Below are positions 8,993-56,447 of a stretch of DNA of 64,000 nt, one piece after another. A program made the position numbers and the translations under genes. Under the pieces are notes generated by a model. That model was not told where the DNA came from, ran no database searches, and saw only the letters and a list, made by a program, of their open reading frames with translations. Source of the stretch: Pelecanus crispus (taxonomy: Eukaryota > Chordata > Aves > Pelecaniformes > Pelecanidae). The stretch spans positions 15,946,734 through 16,010,733 of the forward strand of contig NC_134651.1 of NCBI RefSeq assembly GCF_030463565.1, read 5' to 3'. Numbering within the stretch: the first letter of the stretch is position 1; every line of letters begins with the position of its first letter.

Positions 8993-9454
<462 letters not shown>

Positions 9455-28184: not shown

Positions 28185-29630
28185 CTAATACAAGTGCTCA
28201 AGGACATAATTGGCAATATATTTAACAGCACTTAGAGTCTCCTCACAGGTTGGCTTTATCTGAGGTTCAGGGAGAACAAAACCATATCTACCAGTGTCTC
28301 GGAGCTCAAAAGTGAAAGAGTACTTGATGCCTTGATCGTAAGCCCAGTCGTCAGAGCCCCCTGCAGCAGGATCTGTTGATAAAGAAATAAAATAAAGCTT
28401 AACTGGAAAAGCGTGGCTACGCATTGAAATGTGATATATTTTGGAGTCAAGTCACGTAGCCAGAAATGCAGAAAGGACAGATAAAAAGGAATATTCAGTG
28501 AATTGATTCATTTCTCCTGTTCATGGAAAAGCTTCTGTGATTTTAGGCCATTTGTGAGCTTTGTTCCAGCTGATGCATGCAAGCAAATGTAAACAAGCGT
28601 TAACTGCTCCCTTCTTGTCAATACTGTGGGGAGACCATGAGAGGAATGTCTAGGGAACAGGAGAATGGCATGCTTGCACGGGGTTGTTCAGAAAGATTTG
28701 GTATCAGAAGCAAATACCCTCTCACTGGGCAGCTTTTTGAGGTTCACACAGCTCTGAAAGAACTGCAGATTTGGGATATCAGCTCCATCTTTTTCTTCTG
28801 GACAAACGGTACCCTCCCTTTCCAGTATTTTGGTACAATGAAGGGAGTCTCTTTTGCTAAGGAAGGAGCCTCCAGAATTGCTAAGCATCACCAAAACATT
28901 TTTAAAGAAAAAAGATCCATAAATATTCTAAAAATTGGGAGAAACTGCTTTGTAAAGGTTTTTAAAATTATTTAAGGAAAGAGAAATAGGGAAATTAGTT
29001 TCCATGTTTACTTAAATATAGGAGATTAATTAAAGTTCTAGAAATCTAGATTTGGCAACCTCAGCTCAGCTTTTGACACCGCAAAGGCCATATCCTGACA
29101 GCTGAGTTCCCAAGAAGGGTAGAAGAATGGAATTGTAATTAATACGTTTCTCAGACTGTAATGCAAAGTAAAGGAAATAATTATCTGTATTGCTAGAGTG
29201 GTTGAAACCATTCTTTAAGATTCACATCGTCTTTCACTTTGACTTGGAGATAGTGGAATCTCAGTTTGAGATTTTTATGTTTAGATCTAAGCTGTGTATG
29301 ATTTAGGAATTCATGCTATGCCCATGAATTCCTAAACACTTTACCGTATCACTTTACCTTCCAGGGGTCACACACTCCCTGGGATCCTTAAGGAATATAT
29401 CATCCTATGTTTTAGAAATTACAGATTCCATATATACCTCTGAGTATACTACTTAGGGAGAGGAAGAAGAATCGCTAGAAAACTGCATTTGATAGTCTTA
29501 GTAGCACTTAATATAGATGGCTAGTATGTTTAGGCCAGTACTTACAGATTGTTGTCGCTCCTGGGCCATATGTATATTCAGTATTATACAAACTGGCCAG
29601 CTGTTTGGATGCAGCACGAGCAATGGAATT

Positions 29631-32600
29631 CTGTAGGAAAAGAAGAATGATAAATGCAGATTCTTAGAAGCTTTCTGAGTGAATCTAAGCAAATACATTG
29701 TTGAATAAACTGAAAAGCCATGCTTGAGAAGTTTTTATTTGAAAACTGTTGTTCACGTCTCAGAATGACTAGATGTCAGTAGCTGACAAGGCACAGCTTG
29801 TCCTGTTGTTGTGAAAAGAGCTTATCAGTAAAGAGCTCGTTCTCCAAGCTTTAATGGAGTATAGTCCAGTCTGGGTATTGCTCTGTTGATGTACAGCCTG
29901 CTCTATAGTCCAGTATAGTTTGGATAGATAAGGGGACAATAGGTAACAGGATTTTCTATACTTAGAAGAAACTTGTACAAGATTAAAACTAAATAAGGAA
30001 TCTTATTTAGAGATAAGAGAATCTTAGAGAATAGTAATAATGTGGCACAGTAAATTGCAAACATACAATAGCCTTTCTTTTCCTTCTTTCTATTCTTTCC
30101 AGCTATAAATTCAGAGTAGAGTCAGCTTAGTCAGTAGAGTTGAACGATGATACAAGTGGAAGCAGATTAAGGTCTTATAAATATTAACAGGCAGAAAAGG
30201 CATAAATTACCTTGGAACCATATGTAGTCTCATTAATTTCAATTCATTTCCTGTGCACAGAGGGACTCATTCAACTCCCACTGATTTCAGTGAGGGTTGG
30301 ATCAGGCCCATCAATAGTACTGAGAAGCTTTGTATGTTTGCATTAAGGAAAATTACAGACTTTTCTTTGGAACGTTGTGGCTTTTCCAGTTCTTCATTAT
30401 ACAGCATGTTGGTAATAAAACATGAAAACTATTACTAACAGATGATCAATATGAATGATTTTTGAAAGCAGATGTTCAGTATAAGAATAAGCAATGGGTT
30501 GCCATATCTTTCTTTATAGCTTGCAGCTGAATGGCTTACTATTCTAGGAATTTCCTCAAGCCCCTTCTTTCTCTGTAGGTTATACTCTGGCTTACTTCCC
30601 AGTGGAAGATATATTGTAAAATAGTCTCTGTTCGTCCTTATGCTTCAAGTGTTCCTGTGAATTACTCAAAAAGGCATATTGGACAGTGTGTTCAGAAAAT
30701 CTTAGTTAAGTGCGAGAGCTTTCTCAGCTTCTGCAAAACAACATCAAAATACATTTGCATTAGCACTGGCAGCCTACTTTATTGCAGAATTGCAAGTGTT
30801 TCCCCATTCCCAAATGTTGGATTTTGAACATTGTAGAATTAGAGGAGTTTGCTCTAGGAATTTGTGGTCATTTAGCACGTTAAGAATATTTAAACAAGGC
30901 AGACCAAAGAGTATTTGAAGCTTGTCCTTCCGCCTATAACATTGGCTGTACCTGAATGTGGGGTATAGTTTCTGGCCTCTCTATTGTTCAAAGACAAGCA
31001 ATTGTAGGAAGAATGTTGTTGCTTTGCATTTTGCAGTCTTGGGTTCAGATCAATTGGGGTAGCTGAGCTCTCTCCAGTGATGGGTTTTTGGGGTTTTTTT
31101 GTTTGGTTGGGTTTTTTAAATCCCTTAACAAGCTGGTTTTCATAATTTTTAACACATGTTGAGGGAATTGTAGAGGTCAGAGACTACTATATGCTAGTGA
31201 TACCTTGTTTTCTTCAGTCATCTTTTGTTTATAATATACACATTTAATCAGCAGCTGATATTGAGTCAAACCTTCTCTCAATAGTAGATGAATTTTTAAA
31301 TGTAAACTGATTCTTCCTCTTTTCAAATATATGCAAAGTGGAAATTAATTTGTACAGATAGTCTGATACGATGTATGGACCTGTTGGTAACTAGTATTTG
31401 CTCTCTCTTTAGTAAACTGCATGGTAGGGACAATAGAACAGCAGAGCTGCTCTTTGGGAAGAATAGGGCTTTCACTCACCTGCCAAATGAGAACTTTAAA
31501 TCATACCAGAACAGAGACTAGAAAAAATATGTCAGGAAATCTTTTTACCTGAGGGATTTTTTATTATTGGCCATGAAGTTGCAGAAAGAGAGATTTGTAG
31601 AAAGAGCACTTGAGATTTCCAGCTGTTAAGAGCCTGGAATCCAAATAAACAACTTGCTCTCCAGGCTGGAGATCGAGGTACTATTTTAAATTACCCTCTC
31701 TAAGTGAAAAACATGACTGAGCATTTATGACTTCTTCATGAAATGAAACTTTATCAGAAGTTTTGCTATCTGATTTTTTTCCTTTAATTGACTCTCTGCC
31801 ATTTGCTTTCCTAATAGATTTATAGTCCAAAACCTAAAGGTAAAAAAAAGAAATGTCAACTTTATAGGAACTAAAGTCGCCTCTTAATAATAATATAATA
31901 TAAACCATACAGAATAATAAAAATTGACTAAATACTTGTGAGTATAAATATAAAATATGAGGAAAATTGTTTCTTTTTTTTTTTTTAAATAGCACAATTA
32001 CTCAAAACCATCTGTAAAAAGGAAATAACGTGGAGATTTATGCAGAGGTATATAAATAATGCCCAACATTTTCCAAAAGGTAAAGTGATATTTAGCTTTT
32101 GAAGAGTGGTTTGGATTTTCAAGCCTGTATGTTGTTTGGAGTACAGCTGCAAGGGGAAACACCGCTATCTTTTTGACCTTTGAGGATACTCTTTGCTGTT
32201 GAGTGATTTTCTAGATCTCTTTGCACAACTGGCTTAACTGAATTGTTGTGGTTTGTTTGGAGTTTGTTTGGGGTTTTTTTTTTACTGTTAAGAATCTCTC
32301 TCTTGCAAGGAAAATTTTGCTGAGAGTTATAGCAGCAGAGAAACAACTGGCGCCCTGAAGTCCCAGAAATAACTCCAAATTAATACCTTGTAACTGGGAG
32401 CAGAAATGGCTTTTCAGCTTCTGACTTGCAGCTGAACTCACAGAGCTGGGCATTTCAGCAGAAGGTAGTATTCCCTGCGCTGGTCACCCACCTGTTTACA
32501 CAGCAATCGCTAATATGTTGCTTCATCTTGTGTACAGAGTGCAGGGGCCAGTGAGACAGCAGAGTTGTGTTCTCAGTTGCCATTATCTTACATAATTCAC

Positions 32601-35600
32601 AACATTTAGACCTATTTTTTCAGTTATTAGCTTTTAATGAAAGAGGTGTAACTGCCCTCTCTCACCACATCTGGAGTTTTGGACTAACAAGATAAATTAT
32701 CAGGCTAAGCATCTTCTGTGTGTTAATAGGTAATTTTTTGGGGAGCGTCTCCTTCATTTTACTCTTGTATCATCAGATTTGCCAGCAAATTGCTGCTGTT
32801 TAGAAACACTTCAGGGATGTGGATTGTGCAGCTGCTACATGTGGACAACTCCCTTTGCCCTCACAGTCTGACAGTGATCTGGAGAAGTGAAAAGTCACTG
32901 ATTGGCTGGACCTCTTGCTCTCTTCCCTCACTGGACTGCAAACTGATTTGCCCGAGGCTGAAAACTGTATTTTCACTTCACCTTGGTCTCACGTGCTACT
33001 TAAGCGACCCTCAACTTCCTGTGTCATGAAAGTCTGAAAATGTGGTATTTGCAAAGTTAGCTTTAACCAAGTGAAGCTAAACTTCCGAGGCATCTTGTTT
33101 TGCCAATAAAAACAGACTCCCCTCAAAAGAGTCCATGATTGATGTGTAATTTAGTTCACTATTCTGTCATTGCTCATAGTTAAGCATCCTCCTCCAAGCA
33201 TCCGGGGAACCCAGCCAAGTGGAGGACTTTAGTATGATGCTTCTTTTTCCTTTGCAAGCCTGTTTCTCTGTGGCAGTCTCAGAGTGTTTAAGAAATTGAT
33301 CCTTGGTGAGAGGGTTTCCAGTGTGACTGAGTTAAGGTGAATGTGCCCTACACCTGTTGGAGACTCTTGCCTCAGCCAGATTCATACATGAGCTTCATCT
33401 GGAAGATGCTGCTACTGGCAACATCCTTTTCACGACTGTAAGACTGTCAGTACAGAGCAGTTCTGTTGTGGGACATCTGTTGTGGCAAACTCAGTGGAGG
33501 ACCTGTCAAGCCAATTCCAAACACTGCTTTTCTGCCCACTTTCCTGTTTGTTGTGCTTCCCAGTAGACTTCAACAATATTTACTTGTTACAAATAGTACA
33601 ATCACAGGAGTTTGCAACAGCACAGATACAACAGCAGCATCGGTTGCAACTCCTCATTGGTATGTCCAAGCCTCTTAGATGATAGGATTTTTGCTGTTCA
33701 AAAATTGTTACCCACAGGTCTTCATATATCTTAAACACATTCAGGAATAGTGTCAAGAGTGAAAAGACTTTGCTCCCAGGCATCAGGTTAAATAATCAGA
33801 CTGATATTCACAAAGTCATGCAATGTATTTGAAATTCAATCTTCTTGCAGGCTGCACAGACTCTGAGCATATCTGCACTTTCTACTATATCCTATTTTAA
33901 GCACTCAAGAGGAAATGAAATGCTAGGCTAACCCAATATGGAAGGTGAACTTCAGTGATCTTAAACAAAACCCAATGTGGCCAAGTAATACAAACTGAAA
34001 TCCCGTGTCTAGAAAATTATCTTGGGTTGTAAATTAATATAATATTCTGCAGCCTGCCAGACTGTAATAATACACGTACATTAATCTGACAACGAGTATG
34101 AGCTGGCTGCAGCCATGTATTTGGCACTGAGTTTGTTGTTTAACTGAGAGATGGAATTGAACCTGGAAAGGAAGGAAGGGCACAATGCACGTTCCTCTAC
34201 GCTATCAAATCATAGTTCAGAGCCAATTCAAATACAAACAAGGACTGATCGAGCTAGATTTGTCTGCTGAAAATGAGGAAAGTGTAGGATGACCTAATAG
34301 GAAGCTGAGGCCAAAATATGAACTGATTAAAAAATATAGGCTGAACTGTTTATGAAGAGTGCAATTAAATACAGAGTTCTTTATTGCAAGAGGACAAAAA
34401 TGTGAATAGTAAAATAAAGTTGAAAAGAATCTTGTTGGGGTGTGGAGAGATACTGGTCTTGCCAAGCACGCGTTTTGATTGTGAAAAGCTAGTGCTTCTA
34501 TTCTCTGTAGGAGGTGGATTCAAATGTGTATTCTGTGTGCAGGGGAACACTCCAGGGTATAGTAAAGAATGAGTCAAGAGAGGATTATGAAGCAGGCAAA
34601 ATGTGATTCACCAAAAAGGAGTACATATTTCTTTCAGGGTGTCATCACAAGAATATTGTGTAACTTCGAGAAATTCCTGACCTAGATTTTCCTGTCTTGG
34701 GTGTTTTTATTTTTCTTGTTCAAGTATTGTTTGGATAACAGTGAAACTTTTGTGCAGCATCTGGGCGGAGGGGGGAGGGATGGGGGGGGCAGGGGGCATG
34801 GAGCAAAACAACAACCCTGAATAAAGGAAGAAAAGTTTTGGGAAAATCCTTGTCAGCTGTGGGGTTGAGATCTTCAGAGATCCTCTTGCATCTAAGGAGA
34901 AGAGTGAGAAGTAGGAAAGAAGGGATATACATGACTTTCATCATGTTTTACACCCCAGGGCCAGGGGTGGTTGAGGGATAGGTCTAATCCCCAACTCAAA
35001 GTAAGTTACAATAACTTTGAGGTTGTTCTGATTTGCTATAGCAATGCAGTGGAGCATAAAGGATGTCTGGGATTCTCGGAGTGCCCTGTTCTACCTGAGA
35101 AACCAAAACCAGAACAGTTTAATGCCTTCTGGTGATTTCTTGAGGCGTGAACAGAAAAGGTCTTGAGCCCCAAGGACATGCTGTTCAGTATGCTTGCAGA
35201 AAAGGAAGGTACAAGCGTTCTCTAGATCCTTCTCTTCTGCAGACTTAGTGTCTTCAATCTCAAATTGCTCAATTTTTGTGCCCTTCCATATCTCAGACAC
35301 TGGAATGCAGCATAAGCCCCATGATATTACGCTACCTTTAATTAAATACAATGGAACAAAATGTTGTTAATGATAAGCAGATGTGAGGTTTTGTTTAAGC
35401 ACATGTCCATTTGCTCACTCAAAGAGATAAGAAATTGCAACTGTATTCCCTTTAATTTATTAGATCTGTCAGAGTAAAAATAACATCTAAGATAATGGCA
35501 CTATAAATTTTGCTTCTTCATTTACAAAATGGTTTATAATCCTTTTATTTGCCCAAACAATTTCTATTAAAAGCTGAGATTCTCATTCTTCAGCATTTCT

Positions 35601-38527
35601 CTAAATTCTAAATCTAGACAGAACTTTTAGACATGAAACACAACAATTGGCATACAAAATAATACCTCTTTTGGTAGCTGTCTCATTTCAAGCAAGTACA
35701 ATTGTTGATTGAAAATCTTAAATTTTCTTTAGTCACAGCTTAAATGGATGTGTTTTAGTTATTTGAAGTAACCTGCAAAGCTGCACTTTCAAACCTGACC
35801 CAGAGCCTGTTGAAGTCAGTCTTTCTATTTAATTCACTGACACTGGAGTGAATTAGGCCCTTTCTGTTTAATTATCCCAACTACAGGCAATGTTGATTGG
35901 GTGATACTCTGATCTCATTCTCCAAAAGAAGGATTTTTGGCAAGAAGTCTTCCCTTGTTAAAATCAGATACTGCACAAGTTGAACACCTCTGGGATCCTG
36001 CTGTCTTTTTGTTGGGATCACCAACAGAGGAAATATTTTCCCTTAATTAAGACGTGAAAAACACTCATAAGGTCACCTTGTCATGGTGGTGAGATTTGTG
36101 ATTGCTTTGTAGTGGAAAATAATGGAACTCCCTCTGGGATCAGTGTGCCCGATTTAAAATATAGGAAAAAGTGACATTGGAAAGACTAACTTACAAAGCG
36201 AAATCAAATGGTTGAAGAGAAATATATAGCCTGCATTCCTGAGCTATTTATTTTTTATGCTGAATGGTAACAGCAGAATTGTCCTCTATGGCAGGCAAGA
36301 AGAGTTTTTGTTAATAAAAACTGTAGAACCTTAGTATGGGTGATTCATTAAATTTTACTGTGTATTAGAATAGAACATTGCTTATATAAAATTTTAAAGA
36401 ACTAGAAAAGCACATAGGTTCATTCTTACTGTTAAGGATTGTTTGAACAATGTGCTGTCAATGTAAACTTTTTCCATTTAATACTGTGAGAAACATGCTG
36501 TACTTTTAGTTATGTTTCATCAAATTTGGTCTTGATTCAAAAAATTGGGCAGATTGTCATGCAAATTCTTAACACATGGGAGCTTTGTGATCTTGATAAC
36601 AAAGCAGCTTCAAGGGGTTTGTGTTGTTTTATTACTTTAGACTGAACTGCAATGTGTGAAATGTGAAGCTTTTGTAAAAACTGGCGACAAGAAATTAATA
36701 CAGTTCCCTGGAATAATTACAATTACAAATTTCTGGAATATAAATTAAGAAAACAAAATCTTCATCTAAATTTCATCGTCTCTTTTAAGCTGTAAAAAAT
36801 GTAACAAGAAACTTCACTTTTGGCCCCAGTTTGTGTTTGTGCTTCAGAATCATGACATCTATTTGGGAGCACTCATAAATCTGTCAAATCTGCACAGCAG
36901 AGCAACACACAGTGTTGTTGCCTTGGACTTTTGGCAGCATCCAGGAAACAGGGAGAATCAAGATTTGTTTGGTTTGTTTTGCTATGTTGTTTTCCCTGTC
37001 AACAGCTTCTAATTGCTAATATGCCAGAGAACTGAAGTAATTTTATTATTCACGATTGTTGATTTTTGACCTTATAAAATGTTTACAACTTTTATACACA
37101 TTTAATAGTTTTAACTCCTCTCTCTGTTTTAAGGATAAAAAAAAAAGCATATTCCAGAGTGTTGTTATCTTACTTAAATGGTGTTAGGGTGTGGCTTTAG
37201 TCTAGGATAAATAAAAGAGACGTCATCCTTTAAACACCACATTCATCCTCTCCTCTTCCAAATAAAAATTGTGCTTGAATCCAGGCCTGTTCAGAAAGGC
37301 CTCATAACTGAAAATTTTTAGCTGTTTGTATCTAACTGGTTTTAATTATGCTTTTGACAAAAACTGCCTTGTTGTCCCGAACCTGTATCAATAGGAGTTC
37401 CGACGTTTTACTTCAGTGAGAACTGAGGGTCTGTAGGAAGTGGTAGACAGACATCCTTGGCTGCTGTTGATGATACCAGTTCAGTCATTTTATAGTTATT
37501 ACAATCTATCAAGCTGCTAGCTTGACTTACAGGGCATAATGTTTCTATGTGATGTATTAAAGCTATATACACAGCAACCTCTTGAGTCAGGACGAAGCAG
37601 TGCTGCGCAGCGTAGTGGATTTCTGTATGGCATGGCTGGAAGACAAACCTGACCTTGTGGCAAATTCATTGTGTATGTGGAAATTAAATAAGGCTCTTGA
37701 GTTTATCCGGTCTTGAACTATCTTGAAGCCATCATGGTTTCCCTTGTTCTTGCTATGAAAGACTGAAGCATTTTCAAAAACTGGCAGTATAGATTCTTTC
37801 CAGATGTTAAAGAAACTGCTTGAAGTTAAATGGACCTAAGTAGCAAGTGATGATTTTTACTTGTTCTTTTCATTATGTCAAAATGACAAAGAGACTTACT
37901 GTTCCTCGTAATTCTATGGTAATTTGTAAGTATATGAATAAGGAAACAGTTGCAGCTGGAAATAGGAGTGAATCGTCAAGTACACCTTGATTGTAGAAAG
38001 ATGTTCACAAATAAAATCAGTCAAAGTCTTAGTCTCCTTTTCAGACTCAGGTGCAGAGCCACAGTAAGTAGAATCACAGGGGTTTTTTGAGGCCCCAAGA
38101 GCTGGGAAGAAAGGTGAATTTAATGAGTATTTAATGAAAAAAATTGGTTGTTAGGAGAGTTGTGTTACACCATTTTTGTAGATAAGCCTTGACAATCCTA
38201 CTGACACACATGCTATTTCAGAGGAGAGAATGTTTTATTGTGTAGTTAAAACACTGGGCACCATGACTTAGCATTAAATAACTATGCCCTTTATAGTGTG
38301 CATGGTTGGAAGAACATGAGTATTGATGTAAAGCCCTATATTATGTAAGTGATTTGGGATACTGATTTGCTTCAGTACTTAACTGTCTTCTCCTTGTATA
38401 TCTCCCCCATTTATAGGATGCTTCCAGGAAACAGCCAAGTTGAAACCATTCAAAAGAGACCCCTTTCCACTGAGTGAAACCAACCAAAAGAAAACTCTTT
38501 CGATTTCTATTCTGAACTCATAGAAGA

Positions 38528-38559
<32 letters not shown>

Positions 38560-39020
38560 AAATGTATATATGTGTATATATATGCATGCGTGTGTGTGTA
38601 TATATATGTTCATAGAGGTAGCCATACTGATGATGCTAGTAGCCAAAGTCTGTTTTTTGCCCAAAAATGCCCCAAAAATTGAATACAAGCTACTCCACAA
38701 TGCTGTACTGGTGGTCTTTGCTCAAGCTGGAGCAGGAAGTGGAACAACCATCAGGTAGAGAAAGTCCATAATTAAGCATCTTGGCTACTGCACCTTTGTA
38801 TGATTGCTTGCAGCTACTGTTAGGAGACACTTACTGCACCAGTCAGCAATAATATTCCTGTTGGGATCTGTACCAATGCAATGGCTACCAGCATTTTTAG
38901 ACTATGTCTTTATCCACATGTGGCCCTGAAATAAAATGGTGAAGCATGGAAAACTAAGAGAAAGTTCTAACAGTTGGCTTTTCCAGCAATACTCTTCCTG
39001 CAAAAGAAGGATGTCCTTAC
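29631..39020. other. Enlarged intronic/intergenic DNA of the CPB1 pseudogene
   Basis: In a working gene this stretch should hold the exons with TDLNRNF and IHSYSQ; I could not find them. Contents seen: a G-rich tract at about 34766-34797 (potential quadruplex) and a TG/TA microsatellite at about 38528-38612. Otherwise plain AT-rich sequence. Confidence 0.5.
38528..38612 (+). repeat. TG/TA dinucleotide microsatellite
   Basis: Interrupted (TG)n and (TA)n runs. Open frames over it on either strand are low-complexity artefacts. Confidence 0.85.
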
Positions 39021-39047
39021 ATTTGTCCAAGTGTAAACGTAACCATC
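39021..39047 (-). pseudogene. CPB1: CPB1 exon 7 remnant truncated by an LTR
   Basis: On the minus strand nine codons read DGYVYTWTN, the end of the conserved carboxypeptidase NIDGY...TWT exon, followed by a good donor (GTAAGG, complement of 39015-39020). Immediately on the 5' side of the Asp codon the sequence becomes LTR (TGTCCTG at 39048). The 5' half of the exon (FYVLP...NI) is not found beyond the insertion. Confidence 0.88.
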
Positions 39048-39381
39048 TGTCCTGCTTTCAGCTGGGACAGAGTTAATTTTCTTCCAAGTAGCTGGCACAG
39101 TGCTGTGTTTTGGATTTAGTATGAGAATAATGTTGATAACACACTGATGTTTTAGTTATTCCTAAGTAGTGCTTACAGTAGTCAAGGACTTTTCAGCTTC
39201 CTGTGCCCTGCCAGCGAGAAGCTGGGAGTGGACACAGTCAGGGCAGTTGCCCCAAGCTGGCCAAAGGGATATTCCATACCATATGATGTCATGCTCAGTA
39301 TAGAAACCGGGAGGAGTTGGCTGGGGTGGGTACCACTGCTCGGGAACTGGCTGGGCGTCAGTTGGCAGGTAGTGAGCAATT
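39048..39381 (+). mobile_element. Old ERVL-type LTR, 3'-truncated
   Basis: Aligns with about the first 340 bp of the 571-bp LTR at 49547, in the same orientation, starting exactly at TGTCCTG. It has many substitutions; for example the CRE is TGATGTCA and the TATA box is decayed to TATAGAAA. It stops at GAGCAATT (39381), where a CR1-type tail begins. No matching 3' half is found. An older relative of the young ERV, not part of it. Confidence 0.88.
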
Positions 39382-39543
39382 ACCATAGAATCATAGAATC
39401 GTTTAGGTCGGAGAAGACCTTTAAGATCATCCAGTCCAACCATTAACCTAACATTACCAAGTCCAACACTAAAAGGGTAGAGTAGCAATTTCATGTTTCC
39501 TGGCTTGGTGGCTGGATTATTTATAATGAAAGTAAAAACGAGC
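39382..39543 (-). mobile_element. CR1 composite tail segment
   Basis: Minus-strand copy of the second segment of the composite CR1 3' end also found at 11771-11933 and 42739-42896: on the plus strand it runs CATAGAATCATAGAATCG through CCTGGCTTGGTGGCTGGATT to GTAAAAACGAG. Here it abuts the truncated LTR and ends at the place where, in the other two copies, CR1 proper begins. Confidence 0.85.
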
Positions 39544-40893
39544 AATCCCAAGTGAACTGCTGCTGACGCTCAGAGGACTGTGCTTTTAAAGCACTTCTGC
39601 CTATCCACACTTGGATCCACTGAGCAGAGCCACTGCTGGTGTCAGGTACACCCATGAATTAAGTGACCAGACAGTGAAAATGACAGCTGTAGTGACGTGA
39701 ACTGCTAAGAGAAAAATGGTAGCACATACTGTCTGCAGCCTTATTAGGAGATAATGAAATCACATTCCCATTGACTCCGCTGAGATGTCACTTCCAATTT
39801 CCACTGCTCCCTACACAAAACCGCATGGCTGTCTGATAAGACTGAGATTACACTTGCCACCAAGGCCTCTGCCAGTGTGGCTCACTCACGTACTTTGGCT
39901 TTCCTTTACTTGGGTTTTAAATCCCAGCTGCTGCTTCTGGGTTTGGGTTTTTTTTAATTTTCAAGCAGGAATTCTTACAAAATTTGAGATTTGATCAGTG
40001 AGTTGTTCTGCTAAGTTGATTGATCTCCCCTGCTGAGGGGGAATATACCTCTTCTCTGTAGAGAAGACTGTGCAGCATTTGATAACTCCCACCTGCTTTA
40101 TATTGGTGATGAGGAGAAGGAAAAGACAAAGGAGATTAAATTGTTTAATTCAAGGCCTAAAGTATCCCAGCCTGAAGTGAAGCTAATTTCACCTGTGCAG
40201 CTCTTTCCTGATGGCTTCATGTTTTTAGAAACCATTCTGTGCAACTTGTAGTGGCAGCTCAAAGGGATGTATATGCATTTCCCTCTTCCTGAGTGGAAGG
40301 AGGGAGCTTAGGGAGCTTCATCTGTAGTCTTCCTCCTCTCTTGGGTACATTTCCTTAGTGCACTCTGTGCTTTTAGCTGAGGGTAGGTTTCCACCCTCTC
40401 TGTTGCCCTACTGAGTAAAGTTGGTTGCAGGGAATACAGCACTTGACGTTGTAGCCAGACAGCTGTTCTGACATGCATTCAGATGCCTTCTGATGTGCCC
40501 TTGAATTTCCTTATTCCCTACTCCTTATGACTATGTAAAGAACATGGCTATGTTTATAGTATTACTAGACCTGTTTGCTTGTCTCTCACCTTTCTCTGAC
40601 TACAGGTGCAAAAAGGATTTTATAGACTGTGTAAGTAACCCTTGTAGTTGTCAGTACCTCTTACACATGCTTTTAGGTAGTCTTAAGCTGATGAAAGATT
40701 ACAGGTCCAACCATTAAGATCTGGTTTAAGTAGTTACACCCTAACCATCTGAGGTGAGAGAATGGATGTGCGGACAGGTATTTAGAGGTTAAAAGGCAAT
40801 CTGCAGTGGCCTCAGCTCTTGCTGCTTGCTTAAGATTTTCTTAAACACAGTTGCATTTTGTAAAATATTTTTGCATCATTTAAGCTTACTGAC
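39544..40893. other. CPB1 pseudogene intron
   Basis: No exon or repeat recognised. The missing 5' half of exon 7 would be expected at the left edge if the LTR insertion were clean; it is absent. Confidence 0.5.
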
Positions 40894-40993
40894 TTCTTTC
40901 ACAAACCACTGGCAGAAAGCAGGGGAGATCCACTCTCACATGGAAACCATAATCCGTAAAGATGGCCTTCTTATTTGGACCACTTTTTCCTAT
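40894..40993 (-). pseudogene. CPB1: CPB1 exon 6 (zinc-site exon), frameshifted
   Basis: Minus strand begins after a CTAG acceptor and reads IGKSGPNKKAIF, then GFH and a Val-Arg pair. Two bases are missing where family members have Arg-Glu-Trp, so the frame shifts; after the gap the original frame still spells WISPAFCQWFVKE. The exon is 100 nt, two short of a whole number of codons (102). The zinc-binding HxxE motif is lost, and Met-Asp-Cys before it has become Thr-Asp-Tyr. Confidence 0.9.
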
Positions 40994-41768
40994 CTAGGAA
41001 AAAAAGACCCAACAAAAACCCCGGGTCTTGAACAAAATAATTTGTATGTAGAACAAGTCAGTCAGCTTGCTGACCTAAAAAGTCAAACTTTATACAAATA
41101 CAGCATTCCTTGATTACATGGAAATCTATGGAGTGCTCTCAGCTGTAGCTGACCATGATATTCAAGCTAAAACAATAGCTCTTAATAATTTCATTTTTAT
41201 TAACGTAGATAAGCTTCCCCCCCCCCAATTATTTGATTATTCTGCCCTGTTGATTTATTTCCTGCAGTGTCTCTAAGAGGTCATCTTGTTTGCTTGACTG
41301 ATATATTATTCTAAATGCTGATGCAATTTCGGGCAAGTAATCTTGCAAGTATCCTTTTACCTTTATTTAAGTCATCGTATCTTATTTATTCATAAGAGTT
41401 ATGCCAAAAAATGATATATGATGAAGATACAAACAAATTTGTTGCCTATTGCTAGAGAGACTGACAGTTATAGATCTTTTTAGAGGAAATGGGTTTACAA
41501 ACAACAGGTGGAGAGAAGATAAAGGTAGATGATCAGTCAGATAGCTCTCAGGAGTGTGGTTAAATTTATATGTCTGAACTACTAATAATTCATTATGCCC
41601 CTTTTTAAAAAAAATCTTAAAAGGTGAAAAAATCATAGTAGTAGTGAACAAAATGTATTATTTTCTAAAAAATGTATATTTACTATCTTAGCATCATTGG
41701 TGTTTTAATAGACATAATCTTGTGGAGGTGAATAGAGAAGTCTGGCACAAAGAAATCAAAGCACTTAC

Positions 41769-41870
41769 TTCGAGAAGGTACATTGGCCATCCTTCCTGTG
41801 TTTCCCCAATTACACTGCGAGAGACAAGGACGGGGTTCTGAGCAGCAATATCAGCAGTCCAAGCAGCTAT
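41769..41870 (-). pseudogene. CPB1: CPB1 exon 5, open
   Basis: 102 nt with acceptor TTAAACAG and donor GTAAGT. Reads IAAWTADIAAQNPVLVSRSV then IGETQEGWPMYLLE, the start of the catalytic domain. No stop in this exon. Confidence 0.9.
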
Positions 41871-42738
41871 CTGTTTAATAAGGAGGTTAAATTTACTGAT
41901 GCCTCTGTCCACAGGTCCAGAGTAATTATTTCACAGACTTCAAGCCAGAACGATACTTCTGAGCATCTAACGTGACCTAATATTTAATACAGTTTGTAGA
42001 TTTCTAAGAATTAATTCCTGCTTGTACTAGAGCTATATGTCTGAATTAAGATTTTCTAGTGTGACTTTATCTAAACCCTTCATTGGAGTATGGTTGGTGG
42101 ATTACAAAACCCTTTGAATGCTAACCCTATATAGTTATGACCTTGTCAACCCTTAAACTCTCTTAACAAAATAAAACTGTTTTTCTTGTTAAGCTAAGTA
42201 GTTTGAATGCCTTAAATCTTCTACATGTTGTAATGTTTTTCACTTTCATGGCTCTTTTATTCATCATCATTCTTGAATTACTGACAGAAGTGCTGGACAG
42301 GGATTTGTAGGAACAATCCACCAATGCCACATGCAAAAGAAAGAAAATCGCCTTCATTCTATTTATTGTTTAAGGGAAGTAATAACAGCCTTTTATTATC
42401 TTAATATTTGAGCCAATTCCCTTTGTTACAGGTGCCTTCAGAAGCTCACAAAGAAGTTAACACATCCACACAAAAAAGCATTTCATGCCCAAGAAGGTAT
42501 CTATGAACAAAGAAAAAGACAGGAAACAGCAGACAGATCTAGACAAGCTGACAAGAGAATACTAGAAATAATGCTTGACATTGTGGATGTTGGTGGGGTT
42601 TTGCATGCCAATAACCTTTGCAGAGTCAGAGGAGCTTTTGTTCTTATTTTTAAATAGCTTTGGAAAAGTCAATTTTTATTTTTTAGGAGAGTTCTGGTGG
42701 AAGAACATCTATTAGTTCTGTATTCTATGCTATAAAGC
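41871..42738. other. CPB1 pseudogene intron
   Basis: AT-rich; exon 4 (end of propeptide, HSYxKYN region) would be expected between here and 46913 but was not found. Confidence 0.45.
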
Positions 42739-44675
42739 ATAGAATCGTTTAGGTTGGAGAAGACGTTTAAGATCATCCAGTCCAACCATTAACCTAACAT
42801 TACCAAGTCCAACACTAAACCAATGAAGGGCTGAGTAGCAATTTCATGTTTCCTGGCTTGGTGGCTGGATTATTTATAATGAAAGTAAAAACGAGGAATC
42901 ATTAAGATTGGAAAGGACGCCCAAGATCATCAGTCCAACCATCAACCCAACACCACCATGCCCACTAAACCATGTCCCAAAGTGCCATGTCTACCTGGGT
43001 TTTGAACACTTCCAGGGATGGTGACTCCACCACCTCTCTGGGCAGCCTGCTCCAATGCTTGACTACCCTTTCCATGAAGAAATTTTTCCTAATATCCAAT
43101 CTAAACCTCCCCTGGTGCAGCTTAGAGCCCATTTCCTCTTGTCCTGTCGCTCACTACTTGGGAGAAGAGACCGACACCCACCTCACTACAACCTCCTTTC
43201 AGGTAGTTGTAGAGAGCGATAAGGTCTCCCCTCAGCCTCCTCTTCTCCAGGCTAAACAACCCCAGTTCCCTCAGCCGCTCCTCATAAGACCTGTGCTCCA
43301 GACCCTTCACCAGCTTTGTTGCCCTTCTCTGGACACACTCCAGCACCCCAATGTCTTTCTTGTATTGAGGGGCCCAAAACTGGACACAGTATTCCAGGTG
43401 CAGCCTCACCAGTGCCAAGTACAGGGGGACAATCACCTCCCTGCTCCTGCTGGCCACACTATTCCTGATACAGGCCAGGATGCTGTTGGCCTTCTTGGCC
43501 ACCCGGGCACACTGCTGGCTCATGTTCAACCAGTTGTTGACCAGCATCCCCAGGTCCTTTTCAGCCAGGCAGCTTTCCAGCCACTCTTCCCCAAGCCTGT
43601 AGCGCTGCATGGGGTTGTTATGACTTGAAGTGCAGGACCTGGCACTTGGCCTTGTTAAACCTCATACAATTGGCCTCAGCCCATCGATCCAGTGTGTCCA
43701 GATCCCTCTGCAGGGCCTTCCTACCCTCCAGCAGATCGACACTCCCACCCAGCTTGGTGTCATCTGCAAACTTACTGAGGGTGCACTCAATCCCCTCATC
43801 CAGATCATTGATAAAGATGTTAAACAAGACTGGCCCCAGTACTGAGCCCTGGGGAACACCGCTCGTGACTGGCTGCCAACTGGACTTAACTCCATTCACC
43901 ACTACTCTCTGGGCTCGGCTACCCAACCAGTTTTTTACCCAGCGAAGAGTAAGCCCATCCAAGCCATGAGCTGCCAGCTTCCTAAGGAGAATGCTATGGG
44001 AGACTGTGTCAAAGGCTTTACTGAAGCCCAGGGAGATGACATCCACAGCCTTCCTTCATCCACTAGGTGGGTCACCAGGTCATAGAAGGAGATCAGGTTG
44101 GTCAAGCAGGACCTGCCTTTCATGAACCCATGCTGGCTGGGCCTGATCCCCTGGTTGACCTGCACATGCCTGTTGAGCACACTGAATATGAACCGCTCCA
44201 TAATCCTCCCTGGCACCGAGGTCAGTCTGACAGGCCTGTAGTTCCCCGGATCCTCCTTCCGGCCCTTCTTGTTGATGGGTGTCACATTGGCAAGCCTCAG
44301 GGACGTCCCCTGTTAACCAGGACTGCTGATAGATGATGGAAAGTGGCTTGGCAAGCTCTTCTGCCAGCTCCCTCAATACTCTCAGGTGGATCCCATCTGG
44401 CCCCATAGACTTGTGAGCGTCCAGGTGGCGTAGCAGGTCATTAACCGCTTCCCCCTGGATTATGGGGGCTCCATTCTGCTCCCCATCCTTGTCTTCCAGT
44501 TCAGGGGACTGAATACCCTGGGGATGACTGGTCTGGCTATTAAAGACTGAGGCAAAGAAGGCACTAAACACCTCAGCCTTTTCCTCATCCTTGGTGGCAA
44601 TGTTCCCCCCTGCATTCAATAAAGGATGGAGATTCTCCTTGGCTCTCTTTTTGTTGTTAATGTATTCGTAGAAAC
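42739..44675 (-). mobile_element. CR1 LINE with RT domain and composite 3' end, 5'-truncated
   Basis: Minus strand, inserted in a CPB1 pseudogene intron. From about 44675 downwards it encodes the region before RT, the RT fingers/palm, a [11 protein letters not shown] stretch and the FADDT catalytic motif (within 43618-44046), then the RT C-terminus (43122-43610) and the 3' UTR. The coding parts fall in different frames with stops, so it is dead. CR1 proper ends at about 42897; the extra tail segment 42739-42896 follows directly, as in the copy at 11.8 kb. The least decayed CR1 in the window. Confidence 0.92.
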
Positions 44676-46913
44676 ATAGATACCACTTGGAGAGGATGAG
44701 GATGATCAGGGAGCAATAGCTTCCTCCTAATTAGCACCTGCCAACTTACTCCCATACTAACAAACCTGCAGGGTGGCAACAGTTTGCTTTAGGAAGAATG
44801 GCAATGATGAGACCGAGTGTGTGTAGAAAATGAGCTCTGTGCTGACCTCATGTTGCCAGATTGCCTCTGCCTCAATAGAAAAAGGGTCCTGTCTTGAACT
44901 TATGGCACTGGAGGACAGTTAGTCTGCAGCAACGTAACGCTCCCATGAAGCAATACAGAAATATTTGCCTGATTTAATTCTTTGTCAAACCAGTATTCCA
45001 AAGTTTAGGTGTGGTTTGACAGCTGTATTGCAGGTGGCATTATCCATCCTCCAAGCTACTTTACTGCATGTGAGGTGGGCTATTAAAGTAGAACACACAG
45101 TGGCAAGAAAAACCCAGCATCCTGTCTGGATTGGTTGGATCTCTCATTCATCTTTCCCTGGGGCTGACACAAAGGCACAGCTCACCATCGAGCATACTCT
45201 TGAGGACCTTTTGCTTATATTTCAACCTTGGCTATAAAAAAATGAAGTCCTCTTGTTTTTCCAGTGCTTGTCTTAATGTTCTTACAAATCTTACTCATCC
45301 ATGATACGTCCTTGATCGTTCATGATTTGGATAGAAGAGCAGGAGGCCAGTTTGTGAGGCACCACCAACCTTCAGAACAAACAGTGCAAATGACTACATT
45401 GACATGATGTCATGGCACTGCAGCTGCACTTCAAAAGAATTGTAACAGCTTGGGTTGTCACAAGGACGCACCACTCAAGTTTGTCAGGGACACCTTCCAG
45501 ACATTATGGCCTTTGTTGCAATCAAAAGATTTGTGCATGGACCTGAGGGAGTTCATGAATCTTATAGGAAAAACTAACACATGCAGAGTAACTCCTCCTT
45601 TGCGAACGAGGAAATTCCACTGAAAGTGGATTCCTGTGCTGTATGTGGGCTGTGGCGTTATTGAAAATTATTTCTTCTAGAATGTTTTTAGATTCTGTTC
45701 CCCCAGCAGCATCCAAATCAGACATGGTTAACATGAGACCAGTAAGTTTAGGGATGGATTATCCTTGGATTTAGCAGATCATAAAAGTTATGTTTAATGA
45801 GAACTGTGTAGTGTCCAATGAAGGAGTTTGGTCTGGTGGCAACAATGGGGCTGAGAGACAAAAACTCTCCACTCAGCCAAATGAAGTTGTGAGAATTGAT
45901 CAAGTAACACTGACTTTCGATGTCTGAGGACATCACACATCAAAGAAGCCTGATAATCCAGCTGGGCCAAGCCAATTTGCAAAGCTCAGGTGGAGCTAAA
46001 GGAGCAATGAAGACAGACAGCCCCACTCCACTCCAGCCCAAAGTCAACTTATCCTCAATTAATGCTTGCATAGTGACTAGAAGATATGAAGTATAAGCAG
46101 TTGCCTGGTCCTGCTCTTTTCTCCTTACCCTCCCATTAGTGCTACTCACTACAATGCTTCCATTCTCAGGGATGTGTAATGTGCCATTGTGGTCTGTTCC
46201 CTCCACTTATGCTGCAGTGGCATTCAGTCATGGAAACTCATGTCTTTTTTACTTCTGGGTAATATACTTATGAGATATTTAAGCCAATTAAGAGCTCTGT
46301 CTTTGGAGAAATCCTTGCCATAGATCTGCTGTGTGACTTGAGTAACCCCAAGACTGTCCCGGGAATCTGTTCTCCCCACTCCCTTGGCCCTTCACCTGGC
46401 AACTGTCTTCTCTTTGTCACCAGTTGAGTTTTTTTTGACCCCCTAGCTATCATTCTGCAGTTTAGAGAACTCAGTAGGGAGTCCCCATGGTGGTCCTTGT
46501 GGCTCACCATTTTCTGGCTTCAGTTCCCTACGACTATCATGCAAACCCATCTGGTGTACTTTCTGGGTTTTTGTAGACCTTTGTTTCATTTTGTCTTTAG
46601 TGGGAAATATTTCTTGTCCCCTCTATACTCCAGCCTTGTGTACTGCAGTGATCTTTCACCTTGGGGCAGTTCCTGGTAATAAGTCTTTGCTTCCTATCCT
46701 CTGTCAACATTTCACCTCAGCCCTTTAACGCACAGCAGCTACAGTTCATTTGAACTGCCAAAATTGAAAATTGAAAGCTACCCAGTAGAGGCATCTACAG
46801 GAGGGATGAAGTTTGTGACAGGAAGATCAGTTATCAATATGAAAAGATCAAACATGTTTTCCCCAGTATTTAATCTCCTTCTATTCAAAATACAGTAGTG
46901 AGAATAAACTTAC
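44676..46913. other. CPB1 pseudogene intron
   Basis: No exon or repeat recognised; short open frames on both strands without similarity. Confidence 0.45.
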
Positions 46914-47038
46914 CTGTACTCCAGTCCACTTTCTTTCAAAAGATCTTCAGCCTCAAAAGACTCGTCAACTTCAACTCAGAAATCAACTTGTACTTTTGGC
47001 CTTACAAGTGTGGCAGAGTCTGGCTTCCAAAAGTCAAC
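46914..47038 (-). pseudogene. CPB1: CPB1 exon 3 (propeptide) with premature stop
   Basis: Good splice sites on both sides (CTTGCAG acceptor, GTAAGTT donor). Begins VDFWKPDSATLVRPKVQVDF, then TGA (46976-46978) where the family has Arg, consistent with CGA to TGA, then VEVDESFEAEDLLKESGLEY in the same frame. Confidence 0.93.
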
Positions 47039-48679
47039 CTGCAAGAAAGCCAAATGAATACATAAAAAAATAAATACCTACATATGGCTGTGATTTTTAG
47101 GTGGGTGTACGTGTGATGGTGATGTTGATTGTGATTAACATACCGAATTTCATTCCTATCCTATTACACTGATCTGACCTTGATTGCCAGAAGTATCAAC
47201 CTAAATTTCAACTGGAAATTGATAGAGAAGATTTTGTTAGGCCCTGCAATTTATATGGCAGAATTCTGGAGATGGCAGTGACAGTTTCACAAATGCCAAG
47301 TATTCTACAGCATCTGAGTGCATAGACTTGTGAATATTCTTTACAACTTCTTTCATTCTTTGTACAGATTTCATTGGAGGTTTTTGCCTATAAGTGTTAG
47401 ACAGAAATGGACTCCTGACTCAGTAGTAGAGGGACGCTACATGAATATTTTACATAAATCAGCTGGGAAAGACTGTTGTCTGTATAAGTGCTTTTAAGAC
47501 TCAGTTCACTAAAGTTGCTATGAGGAACCTGTGCCTTTGTAAGATGTTTAGTTCAGGGTGGACAAATGACAGTGCTATTACGATTTCACGTATTTCTGCT
47601 GAAGTCAGCTTCCAGACCTCTGGATTTAGCGCCCTATTAAAGGGCAATGAAAGCAAAGATGGTTTGCCAACCTAATGCATTTTCAGCCTTTCATCTCATG
47701 AATGTAAAGAAAATTGGGGCTGGTGGGCATATTCATGAACTATGTGTCTTCAAGTGAGATGACTGTTCCAGGATATACTACTACATCAGTCCTGACTGAT
47801 TGCTTTGTATAACGATGGTAGTCCAGGGATATTTTCCTTGCTTAAAAGAAAAACAAAACAAACAATCCCTTTTTACTACACCCTTAAAAGCAAGTTTGGT
47901 GTATTAATTTACTTAATATTGGCAGCACCATTCCAATAGTATATTTTTCTACAGAATACTGTTTCAGCATGCTATATTAGCCTGTTGATGATAGTTTTCC
48001 ACATCTGTACTTCGTTAAAAATACCATCCTTTCATCCTACAGATAATGGTGTCTTTTTCACCAACAGCTATTTTACAACATCAAAGCTGAAGAGAAATAT
48101 TGAAAACACATTTGCTGTCTTTATTGTTTTTTCTCATGTCATTGTGTCATCATATATCTAAGGTCAATAAGAAACATGCAGCTTGGCTGGATAGAAAGGA
48201 AGCTTTAAAAAAAAGTCAGAAAAGAAAAGATGACATGAGAGACTAGAGGCCAAAGAGAAGTTAAATTTGGTGGGAGTATGGATTTTTAGATTATTTACAT
48301 GAGCAAAGTATTTTGCCTATAATGGTAAAAGTTCTGGTAGTTGGAATTTCCATGTTTTATCTAATACGTTCTTGAAAGCACCCCACACTGAATACAGCAT
48401 TTCAGATTAACCTATTCTATTAATAAATTCTGGTGGGTACTTTGATATTCAGACAGGGTTAATCAGACTTTCTAGGAAGGTATTGGAATGTATTTGCATA
48501 GCTCTAGCTTTATCACCTTGTCCTGTTCTTTCTGAAGAAACACTCCAGCTGACTTGAATGGAATCAAGATTAGGTCTTTAATTCAGTAGCATGATTTTTT
48601 TTTTAAGATATATGTTAGTTCTACAAAAGGAGAAATGTTCCTTTCAAATGCAATATAGCCCATTCCCCAAGTTCTTTAC

Positions 48680-48756
48680 CTGCATGTTGCTGCCAAGGGA
48701 ATCGATGATTTCCACCTGCTCAATCATTCTGCGGAATCAGACTAAACACCTTCTGC
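48680..48756 (-). pseudogene. CPB1: CPB1 exon 2 with one-base insertion
   Basis: After a CTTTCAG acceptor it reads QKVFSLIPQND, then one extra T shifts the frame; beyond it the original frame spells EQVEIIDSLGSNMQ up to the donor GTAAAG. This is the KVFRV start of the carboxypeptidase activation peptide. Confidence 0.88.
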
Positions 48757-48849
48757 CTGAAAGGAGAGAAAAAGATGGGATTTGAAACAGGTAAGTCAAC
48801 GGGAAGGCTCATGCAGAAGAAATTGTGCAAATATAAAACTTGATGTTTG

Positions 48850-48980
48850 TTCTTGCCCGTCAAAGGCAAGATCCTGCAGGTGAGCAGAACAGCTGCAGCA
48901 CCTCTGAGAACCAAGAGTGCACATAGGTTTTCACTTCTTCTATGCTGCTTTTATAACATGTTTTGTCCTGCTTTTTATCA
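48850..48980 (-). promoter_or_regulatory. CPB1: Decayed CPB1 first exon and promoter
   Basis: The minus strand has TATAAAA (48949-48955) and a second AT-rich GATAAAAAG about 25 bp further up, then ATG at 48924. In the +2 frame the following sequence is a plausible signal peptide (ALLVLRGAAAVLL), so one base appears lost just after the ATG. Short leader and TATA box are typical of pancreatic enzyme genes. The exon's 3' limit is not clear. Confidence 0.55.
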
Positions 48981-49541: not shown

Positions 49542-49546
49542 ACTCC
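49542..49546 (+). repeat. ERV target-site duplication, left copy
   Basis: ACTCC immediately before the 5' LTR, matched by ACTCC at 56448-56452 immediately after the 3' LTR. Five-bp duplications are usual for class III elements. Confidence 0.85.
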
Positions 49547-50117
49547 TGTCCTGGTTTCGGCTGGGATAGAGTTAATTTTCTTCCTAACAGCAGGCATAGT
49601 GCTGTGTTTTGGATTTAGTAGGAGAAGAATGTTGATAACAGGCTGATGTTTGTAGTTGTTGCTAAGTACTGCTTATGCTAGTCAAGGACTTTTTCAGCTT
49701 CCCATGCTCTGCCAGGCGCACAAGAAACTGTGAGGGGGCACAGCCAGAATAGTTGATCCAAACTGACCAAAGGGCTATTCCATACCATATGACGTCATGC
49801 TCAGTATATAAACTGGGGGGGGTTGGCCGGGGAGCAGCGATCGCTGCTCGGGAACTGTCTGGGTATCGGTCGGCGGGTGGTGAGCAATTGCATTGTGCAT
49901 CACTTGCTTCGTGTATCATTATTATTATTATCATTATTATACTGTTACTATTAGCATTACTATTTTACTTTATTTCAATTATTAAACTGTTCTTATCTCA
50001 GCCCAGGAGTGTTTCTCACTCTTACTCCTCCAATTCTCTCCCCCATCCCATCGGGGTAGGGGGAGTGAGCGAGCGGCTGCGTGGTGCTTAGTTGCTGGCT
50101 GGGGCTAAACCACGACA
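49547..50117 (+). repeat. 5' LTR
   Basis: 571 bp, TGTCCTGG...CACGACA. Contains a perfect CRE/ATF site TGACGTCA (49790-49797), a TATA box TATATAAA (49805-49812), an 18-bp perfect palindrome (49832-49849) at the expected transcription start, an ATT-rich tract, and ATTAAA (49981-49986) as likely poly(A) signal. The order defines U3 up to about 49835, then R and U5. Confidence 0.95.
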
Positions 50118-50125
50118 GTCCTTTT

Positions 50126-50143
50126 TGGCGCCCAACGTGGGGC
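50126..50143 (+). other. Primer binding site, tRNA-Lys type
   Basis: TGGCGCCCAACGTGGGGC is complementary to the 3' end of tRNA-Lys(1,2), the primer type used by several class II viruses. It begins 8 nt after the LTR end, a slightly longer spacer than usual. Confidence 0.85.
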
Positions 50144-50228
50144 TTGAGATAACAACAGATTAATCAGAGTGTATTAAGGAGTCTGTTAACAGTTGCCGGT
50201 CACGATATTAGTTCTTCTGATCTGCACC

Positions 50229-52223: not shown

Positions 52224-52257
52224 AGGGGCCCTGCCTCCAGCCAGGTGGAGGAAAGGG
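52221..52257 (+). promoter_or_regulatory. Candidate gag-pol stop-codon readthrough site
   Basis: The gag stop (UAG, 52221-52223) is the only stop between gag and pol, which are in the same frame. Five nt later CCCT (52229-52232) can pair with AGGG (52254-52257), and inside this CCTCCA (52234-52239) pairs exactly with TGGAGG (52246-52251) around a 6-nt loop. The loop also has complementarity to CCTGG at 52293-52297, which would permit a pseudoknot. The layout resembles the gammaretroviral readthrough signal, though the sequence differs. Confidence 0.6.
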
Positions 52258-55409: not shown

Positions 55410-55876
55410 ACTGAATTGTATAATATTAATTGCTTTATAATACTGTATGTTATCTCTTAACTATATGTTATCTCTTAACTGCATGTTAATATAATAATAT
55501 AGTAGGTTAATATTAAGTATATAATACTATATATTATGATTGCTATATGCCGCATCAATGGTATTGCAGTAAGAATTGCCCAGCCTAAGGAAAATGAACT
55601 TTGATGAAACCATGTTGGAATGAGAACTGACTTCAGCATGCAACAGTCCAACACTGCACACCACCTGTCCTGCTCTGAAAGACTGTGATGACAGATGGAA
55701 CCCAAAGTCATGGGCTAAATGAACTCAATGGACATTTTAGAGGGATGGGCCATAGACGAAGGGAATGATATCTGTGTGTATATCAAGATAGGGAAAGGGG
55801 TGGTGATTAATTGGAACACATTGGAAAGGGGAGGGCCTGTGCATGACGTAGATGGTATAGAATAAGGGGTGGATAC
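55410..55876 (+). other. ERV 3' region without env
   Basis: AT-rich, no open frame of note on the coding strand. Contains a short direct repeat (TATGTTATCTCTTAACT twice near 55445-55482). A purine-rich stretch (AATAAGGGGTGGA, about 55861-55873) just before the 3' LTR is the probable polypurine tract. Confidence 0.75.
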
Positions 55877-56447
55877 TGTCCTGGTTTCGGCTGGGATAGA
55901 GTTAATTTTCTTCCTAACAGCAGGCATAGTGCTGTGTTTTGGATTTAGTAGGAGAAGAATGTTGATAACAGGCTGATGTTTGTAGTTGTTGCTAAGTACT
56001 GCTTATGCTAGTCAAGGACTTTTTCAGCTTCCCATGCTCTGCCAGGCGCACAAGAAACTGGGAGGGGGCACAGCCAGAATAGTTGATCCAAACTGACCAA
56101 AGGGCTATTCCATACCATATGACGTCATGCTCAGTATATAAACTGGGGGGGGTTGGCCGGGGAGCAGCGATCGCTGCTCGGGAACTGTCTGGGTATCGGT
56201 CGGCGGGTGGTGAGCAATTGCATTGTGCATCACTTGCTTCGTGTATCATTATTATTATTATCATTATTATACTGTTACTATTAGCATTACTATTTTACTT
56301 TATTTCAATTATTAAACTGTTCTTATCTCAGCCCAGGAGTGTTTCTCACTCTTACTCCTCCAATTCTCTCCCCCATCCCATCGGGGTAGGGGGAGTGAGC
56401 GAGCGGCTGCGTGGTGCTTAGTTGCTGGCTGGGGCTAAACCACGACA
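55877..56447 (+). repeat. 3' LTR
   Basis: 571 bp, identical to the 5' LTR except G at 56061 instead of T at the matching position 49731. Followed by the right target-site copy ACTCC (56448-56452). Confidence 0.95.

What the first reader, a model, noticed from the sequence alone, without database searches (positions are those of the whole stretch)
28185..48924. A pancreatic carboxypeptidase B gene dead by many independent hits
Eight exon remnants lie in the right order and strand, with usable splice sites, yet exons 1, 2 and 6 are frameshifted, exon 3 has a stop, exon 7 is cut by an LTR and exons 4, 8 and 9 are not found. The last two exons are still clean, including SDDW (B-type specificity), the Tyr of the substrate-binding loop and the catalytic Glu of FELRD. 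Since it keeps introns it is not a retrocopy: it is either a lost single-copy gene or a dead tandem duplicate. Loss would matter for dietary protein digestion in this lineage.
Basis: partly seen in the sequence, partly recalled or inferred. Interest (0 to 1): 0.8.

Follow-up and report, generated by a model that had tools for sequence, protein, structure and literature searches.

The report
Dead pancreatic carboxypeptidase B bird gene
In this bird genome the only copy found of the gene for pancreatic carboxypeptidase B, a protein-digesting enzyme that many other birds keep, is broken in at least eight places, and a second, older dead carboxypeptidase gene lies next to it.

Summary
On the minus strand at 28185-48924 lies CPB1, with introns and most splice sites kept. 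Exon 4 and most of exon 7 are not found. Lesions: frameshifts in exons 1, 2 and 6 (the last in the zinc-ligand codon Glu72), stops in exons 3, 8 and 9, an LTR fragment in exon 7. Own-genome searches found no other CPB1; of six other M14A genes only CPB2 has Asp255. Constraint is gone: 12 of 120 sites invariant in 72 CPB1 models are changed (models: median 0, maximum 6 of 135). New here: a second, more decayed carboxypeptidase array at 14.7-19.1 kb, probably CPA3, and decayed-looking CPB1 models of a gannet and an eagle, which suggest repeated loss. A paper lists CPB1 as positively selected in Accipitriformes; decay could explain that. Species not identified; no RNA or reads.

The parts
48857..48924 (-). 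CPB1 exon 1 remnant (start codon, signal peptide): two small deletions (one aligned, one inferred from the ATG being out of frame), GC instead of GT donor
48680..48756 (-). CPB1 exon 2 remnant (propeptide): 1-bp insertion that makes an in-frame TGA; both splice sites kept
46914..47038 (-). CPB1 exon 3 remnant (propeptide): TGA at codon 70 (46978-46976); both splice sites kept
41769..41870 (-). CPB1 exon 5: frame open, both splice sites kept, four residues seen in no intact row
40894..40993 (-). CPB1 exon 6 remnant: 2-bp deletion near 40936-40933 inside the HxxE zinc motif (Glu72 codon)
39021..39047 (-). CPB1 exon 7 remnant: last 9 codons (DGYVYTWTN) and donor; the 5' part is not found
39048..39381 (+). 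LTR fragment that interrupts exon 7, 82-83% identical to the LTRs of the provirus at 49546-56447
38835..38925 (-).
37900..38101 (-).
29546..29630 (-). CPB1 exon 10: open, splice sites kept
28185..28372 (-). CPB1 exon 11: open, with Asp255 (SDDW), Glu270 (FELRD) and the stop codon
14712..19084 (-). Second, more decayed M14A carboxypeptidase array (probably CPA3): exon 3-like 19084-18929, exon 6-like 16783-16706, exon 7-like 16254-16147, exon 8-like 15139-15044, exon 9-like 14861-14712
4329..5930 (+). PIGZ, open frame, syntenic neighbour and control for local assembly quality

Best explanation
This is a unitary pseudogene: the single-copy orthologue of pancreatic procarboxypeptidase B (CPB1) of this bird, dead at its ancestral place between AGTR1 and PIGZ. 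It makes no working enzyme. SHOWN: at least eight disabling lesions of different kinds, a changed active site, free decay at otherwise invariant positions, and no other CPB1 found in the assembly. INFERRED: constraint on B-type pancreatic digestion was lifted in this lineage, a first lesion (not identified) was fixed, and point mutations, small indels and transposable elements then accumulated, very roughly 15-30 million years ago (neutral rate from memory). Without CPB1 the pancreas would lack the enzyme that trims the C-terminal Lys/Arg left by trypsin; other basic carboxypeptidases would have to do that work, or it is not needed.
For: Exon array and lesions: control. Orthology: an open AGTR1 (359 aa, best match type-1 angiotensin II receptor, E 3e-190) on the same strand about 20 kb upstream, found with the AGTR1-like part of a crane model that fuses it to CPB1 (94 of 94 residues identical); CPB1 and PIGZ on contigs of equal length in 9 of 14 bird species named in both lists (compared by eye; 4 differ, 1 has no contig). 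Single copy: own-genome searches with the M14 family, hoatzin CPB1 and the propeptide family show CPB1 only in this window; residue 255 in the six paralogues is I, I, I, D (CPB2), M, R. Release from constraint: 12 of 120 invariant sites changed, against a median of 0 and a maximum of 6 of 135 in 72 models; 23 of 343 residues seen in no such model (6.7%) against a median of 0.73% and a maximum of 5.1% in the 69 bird models. Local assembly quality: PIGZ open over 533 codons, 95% identical to penguin; AGTR1 open.
Against: Exons 10-11 are nearly clean (2 of 89 unique residues against 21 of 254 elsewhere; Fisher p = 0.052), which would fit weak residual constraint, though chance suffices. Most splice sites are intact. 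The small indels seem to lie in or beside short repeats, where long-read errors occur. The own-genome searches look only at the best candidates, and the propeptide search missed even the exon 3 remnant here, so they speak on intact copies, not decayed ones. No reads, RNA or second individual were available.
Confidence: 0.94

Rival explanations
1. A dead tandem duplicate: the working CPB1 lies elsewhere in the genome or in an assembly gap.
For: A second dead carboxypeptidase array lies nearby, so this family did duplicate here. The assembly may be incomplete.
Against: The dead copy is the one beside AGTR1, where the crane model joins AGTR1 to CPB1. Three own-genome searches showed no other copy.
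Confidence: 0.03
2. Assembly or sequencing error in a living gene.
For: The small indels seem to lie in or beside short repeats, where long-read errors occur.
Against: Three in-frame stop codons, an LTR fragment inside exon 7, an exon 4 that is not found, and 12 of 120 invariant residues changed are not indel errors. The neighbouring PIGZ and AGTR1 frames are open.
Confidence: 0.01
3. A partly retained function: exons 10-11, or a non-coding transcript from the locus, are still used.
For: Exons 10-11 are open with good splice sites and carry fewer unique residues (2 of 89) than the rest (21 of 254), p = 0.052.
Against: Two C-terminal exons hold neither the zinc site nor the propeptide. The difference is borderline.
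Confidence: 0.02

Closest known systems
CPB1, pancreatic procarboxypeptidase B (peptidase family M14A), e.g. human 1kwm, pig 3glj, storm petrel P0094
   Same: Exon order, junctions, zinc-site, Asn144-Arg145, Asp255, Glu270 and Tyr248 positions can be traced; exon 11 is 97% identical to the trumpeter protein.
   Different: Frameshifts, three stops, LTR fragment, exon 4 and most of exon 7 not found, Arg127 to Ile: no enzyme can be made.
CPB1 models marked LOW QUALITY of northern gannet (Morus bassanus, P0286) and crested eagle (Morphnus guianensis, P0282)
   Same: Changed at 12 of 124 and 9 of 124 invariant sites, active site hit (gannet Glu270 to Lys, Tyr248 to Asn; eagle Arg71 to Gly), and residue 70, a stop in the window, is missing from both models.
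   Different: Other changes otherwise; the exon 7 part lost in the window is present in both. Only protein models were seen, not their DNA.
CPA3, mast-cell carboxypeptidase A3, locus partner of CPB1 (PMC8834431, passages)
   Same: The second dead array lies on the same strand next to CPB1, on the side away from AGTR1, which is the human arrangement (order within the pair recalled).
   Different: Too decayed to tell CPA3 from an old CPB1 duplicate: exon 8 was hit only with CPA3, exon 9 scores higher with CPB1.

Membership tests
CPB1 orthologue | Best sequence match is CPB1 rather than other M14A | tested here: met
   Exons 10 and 11 are 96% and 97% identical to trumpeter CPB1; SDDW (Asp255) present. 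CPB2, the other Asp255 gene, lies on C1.
CPB1 orthologue | Syntenic place beside AGTR1 | tested here: met
   AGTR1 open frame at L037:170-1249, minus strand, about 20 kb beyond the window end. A PMC8834431 passage places human CPB1-CPA3 beside the angiotensin receptor gene (it writes type II; AGTR1 is my recall).
Functional M14A carboxypeptidase | Open reading frame with intact zinc site and active-site residues | tested here: not met
   Stops in exons 3, 8, 9; frameshifts in exons 1, 2, 6 (Glu72 codon); Arg127 to Ile.
Unitary pseudogene | Dead copy at the orthologous place and no functional copy elsewhere | tested here: met
   within the limits of the assembly and of a search of best candidates.
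Unitary pseudogene | Evolves without constraint | tested here: met
   12 of 120 invariant sites changed; 72 models: median 0, maximum 6 of 135. Exons 10-11 borderline slower (p = 0.052).
Unitary pseudogene | No transcript or protein | not testable with these tools
   No RNA or protein data.
Processed retrocopy | No introns | tested here: not met
   Ten separate exons over 20.7 kb with splice sites.
CPA3 (second array) | Place next to CPB1 on the same strand | tested here: met
   Order AGTR1 - CPB1 - array, all minus strand.
CPA3 (second array) | Closer to CPA3 than to CPB1 in sequence | tested here: inconclusive

The most novel reading that the evidence does not exclude
Pancreatic CPB1 has been lost several times independently in predatory birds (gannet, crested eagle, and this species whatever its diet), here with an older loss of its tandem neighbour CPA3, so that the published signal of positive selection on CPB1 in Accipitriformes is partly the decay of a dead gene.
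Probability: 0.35. Interest if true: 0.62.

Novelty: new member of a known kind. Interest (0 to 1): 0.45.

Why it matters
CPB1 is one of the classic pancreatic enzymes, and models not marked low quality exist in 69 bird rows from tinamous to passerines. Its loss here, with three CPA-type genes, CPO and CPB2 present, makes a natural knock-out: it asks whether a vertebrate needs luminal B-type carboxypeptidase at all. The decayed models of gannet and eagle make repeated loss testable against diet, and warn that high dN/dS in bird CPB1 may be decay rather than adaptation.

Tried and rejected
Retrocopy: rejected, introns kept. Assembly error: rejected as told under rivals. Compensation by another M14A gene that gained Asp255: not seen; the six paralogues carry I, I, I, D (CPB2), M and R (CPO). 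Their integrity was not tested exon by exon.

Shared ancestral loss with gannet and eagle: the protein tree of 31 rows does group the three decayed rows (97/88), with window and gannet nearest (95/73), and residue 70 is hit in all three; this speaks for shared history. I do not adopt it, because intact storm petrel, penguin and ibis models would have to lie outside that group against the accepted bird tree (recalled), the stem is short (0.011) against end branches of 0.11-0.17, and residues shared only by decayed rows are few (2, 2 and 3 per pair). Three of the five such sites are Arg sites, where recurrent CpG mutation could act (inference; gannet and eagle DNA not seen). AU tests: window with eagle not rejected (p 0.49); eagle with gannet p 0.033.

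Species: PIGZ identity (95% penguin, about 93% heron, owl, eagle, cormorant) points to Neoaves, but the tree gave no supported place; left unnamed. A cytochrome b family search, meant as a step to the species, was tried twice and not answered. Searches of the literature for CPB1 loss in birds (one search showed 15 of 72 papers) listed no paper that reports it in its title or the start of its abstract; the library is partial. Papers seen as passages only: PMC8403425, PMC8834431, PMC9925722, PMC8119460, PMC9210794, PMC13337447, PMC5742104, PMC8537139. The paper by Akula and others (2022) is not held. Searches gave nothing of use.

Full report
Place and kind. The window is G000:C9:15946734-16010733 of a 1.31-Gb assembly in 310 contigs. 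PIGZ (window 4329-5930) is 95% identical to penguin and about 93% to heron, owl, eagle and cormorant, so this is very likely a neoavian bird; the species was not identified.

The gene. tblastn with human and pig CPB1 and bird CPB1, then a frameshift-aware alignment to the storm petrel protein and a look at the DNA, give ten of eleven exons on the minus strand, from an ATG at 48924 to a TAG at 28185. Exon 4 and the 5' part of exon 7 score no better than shuffles (27 and 28; 47 and 22 of 60 shuffles do as well); of exon 7 the last nine codons and the donor remain. Most splice sites are kept, judged by eye; the exon 1 donor is GC.

The lesions. Exon 1: two small deletions. Exon 2: a 1-bp insertion that makes a stop. 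Exon 3: TGA at codon 70. Exon 4: not found. Exon 6: a 2-bp deletion in the Glu72 codon of the HxxE zinc motif. Exon 7: cut by an LTR fragment (39048-39381), its 5' part not found. Exon 8: TAG, and Arg127 to Ile. Exon 9: TAG. Exons 10 and 11 are open; Tyr248 is formed across their junction. Indel sizes are inferred against proteins, since no intact bird CPB1 DNA was seen. The numbering of active-site residues follows bovine carboxypeptidase A and is recalled.

Constraint. The panel came: 72 CPB1 protein models (69 birds, with Tyto alba twice; one alligator, two turtles). The LOW QUALITY models of Alca, Morus and Morphnus were set aside for separate scoring, and second models of Rissa and Eurypyga (P0096, P0247) were left out. 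Against this panel the window is changed at 12 of 120 invariant sites, Morus at 12 of 124, Morphnus at 9 of 124, Alca at 1 of 130; leave-one-out for the panel gives a median of 0 and a maximum of 6 of 135. Residues seen in no panel row: 23 of 343 in the window, against a median of 0.73% and a maximum of 5.1% in the bird rows. Six of the 72 rows lack or differ at an active-site position: five through missing parts only, one (Crotophaga) also by a substitution, so not every panel model is perfect. Exons 10-11 carry 2 of 89 unique residues against 21 of 254 elsewhere (Fisher p = 0.052), which I read as chance or at most weak residual constraint.

Orthologue, single copy. An open 359-aa frame on the same strand, about 20 kb beyond the window's end, is AGTR1 (type-1 angiotensin II receptor, E 3e-190). 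It was found with the first part of a crane model that fuses it to CPB1. In the own genome the M14 family search gave 64 matches, two of them in C9 and both in this window; hoatzin CPB1 gave 37, eight in C9 and all in this window, the rest in the paralogues apart from one weak match on C4 (E 0.05); the propeptide family gave six, none in C9, at the six paralogue loci. The six other M14A genes carry Ile, Ile, Ile (three CPA-type genes), Asp (CPB2), Met (CPA6) and Arg (CPO) at position 255 (gene names by residue and recalled position; the meaning of residue 255 from passages of PMC9925722). Of these, only CPB2 is B-type.

A second dead gene. Downstream, at 19084-14712 on the same strand, five further exon-like pieces (3, 6, 7, 8, 9) lie in order. 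Single pieces score 23-33 bits, against 25.0 for the best of 20 shuffles and 28.5 for the best single hit among the top chains of 300 shuffles; the chain is what counts, and 0 of 300 shuffled queries reached the chain score of any of three CPB1 queries. By eye, splice signals sit at the homologous places before exons 6, 8 and 9 and after exons 3, 6 and 8. Passages of PMC8834431 say that human CPB1 and CPA3 form one locus between the angiotensin receptor gene and GYG1/HLTF and that they lie together in all tetrapods. The array is therefore most likely CPA3, but its sequence does not decide it.

Other birds. CPB1 models not marked low quality are listed for many birds, hunters and fish-eaters among them (barn owl, falcon, penguins, gulls, an auk, storm petrel, ibises, each a list of the best 120), so meat or fish diet alone does not predict loss. 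Two models marked LOW QUALITY, of northern gannet and crested eagle, are changed at invariant and active-site positions. They look like dead genes, but only proteins were seen. The three decayed rows group in a protein tree (97/88); I read this as recurrent mutation on long branches rather than shared loss, without proof. PMC8403425 (passages) names CPB1 as positively selected in Accipitriformes; decay could give such a signal. That is a lead, not a result.

Age. With about 0.06-0.11 excess amino-acid changes per site and a neutral bird rate from memory, loss dates very roughly to 15-30 million years ago.

Verdict. A real, old unitary pseudogene of CPB1 in its ancestral place. Gene loss is a known kind of event; what is of interest is the enzyme, the completeness of the loss, and the hint of repetition.

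Noticed in passing
window 14712-19084, minus strand: Second, more decayed M14A carboxypeptidase array, probably CPA3, with splice signals at homologous positions.
   Followed up: yes
window 49546-56447, plus strand: Young provirus just upstream of dead CPB1: LTRs 99.8% identical over 572 bp, long gag- and pol-like open frames (names recalled), about 470 bp between the pol-like frame and the 3' LTR. Described only.
   Followed up: partly
window 39385-39547, 42732-42900 and 11767-11931: The same repeat piece (86-92% alike) sits next to the LTR fragment in exon 7, beside a block with reverse-transcriptase-like frames at about 43.1-44.6 kb (CR1-like, recalled), and at 11.8 kb.
   Followed up: no
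window 2965-4170: GC-rich stretch with overlapping open frames on both strands that encode a repeated Ala/Gly/Pro/Arg motif, just before the long PIGZ frame.
   Followed up: no
window 8993-9379, minus strand: Short open frame that resembles NCBP2AS2 (recalled, not searched), which would place NCBP2 between PIGZ and the second dead carboxypeptidase.
   Followed up: no
P0286 (Morus bassanus) and P0282 (Morphnus guianensis): CPB1 models that look like translations of dead genes; both lack residue 70, where the window has a stop.
   Followed up: partly
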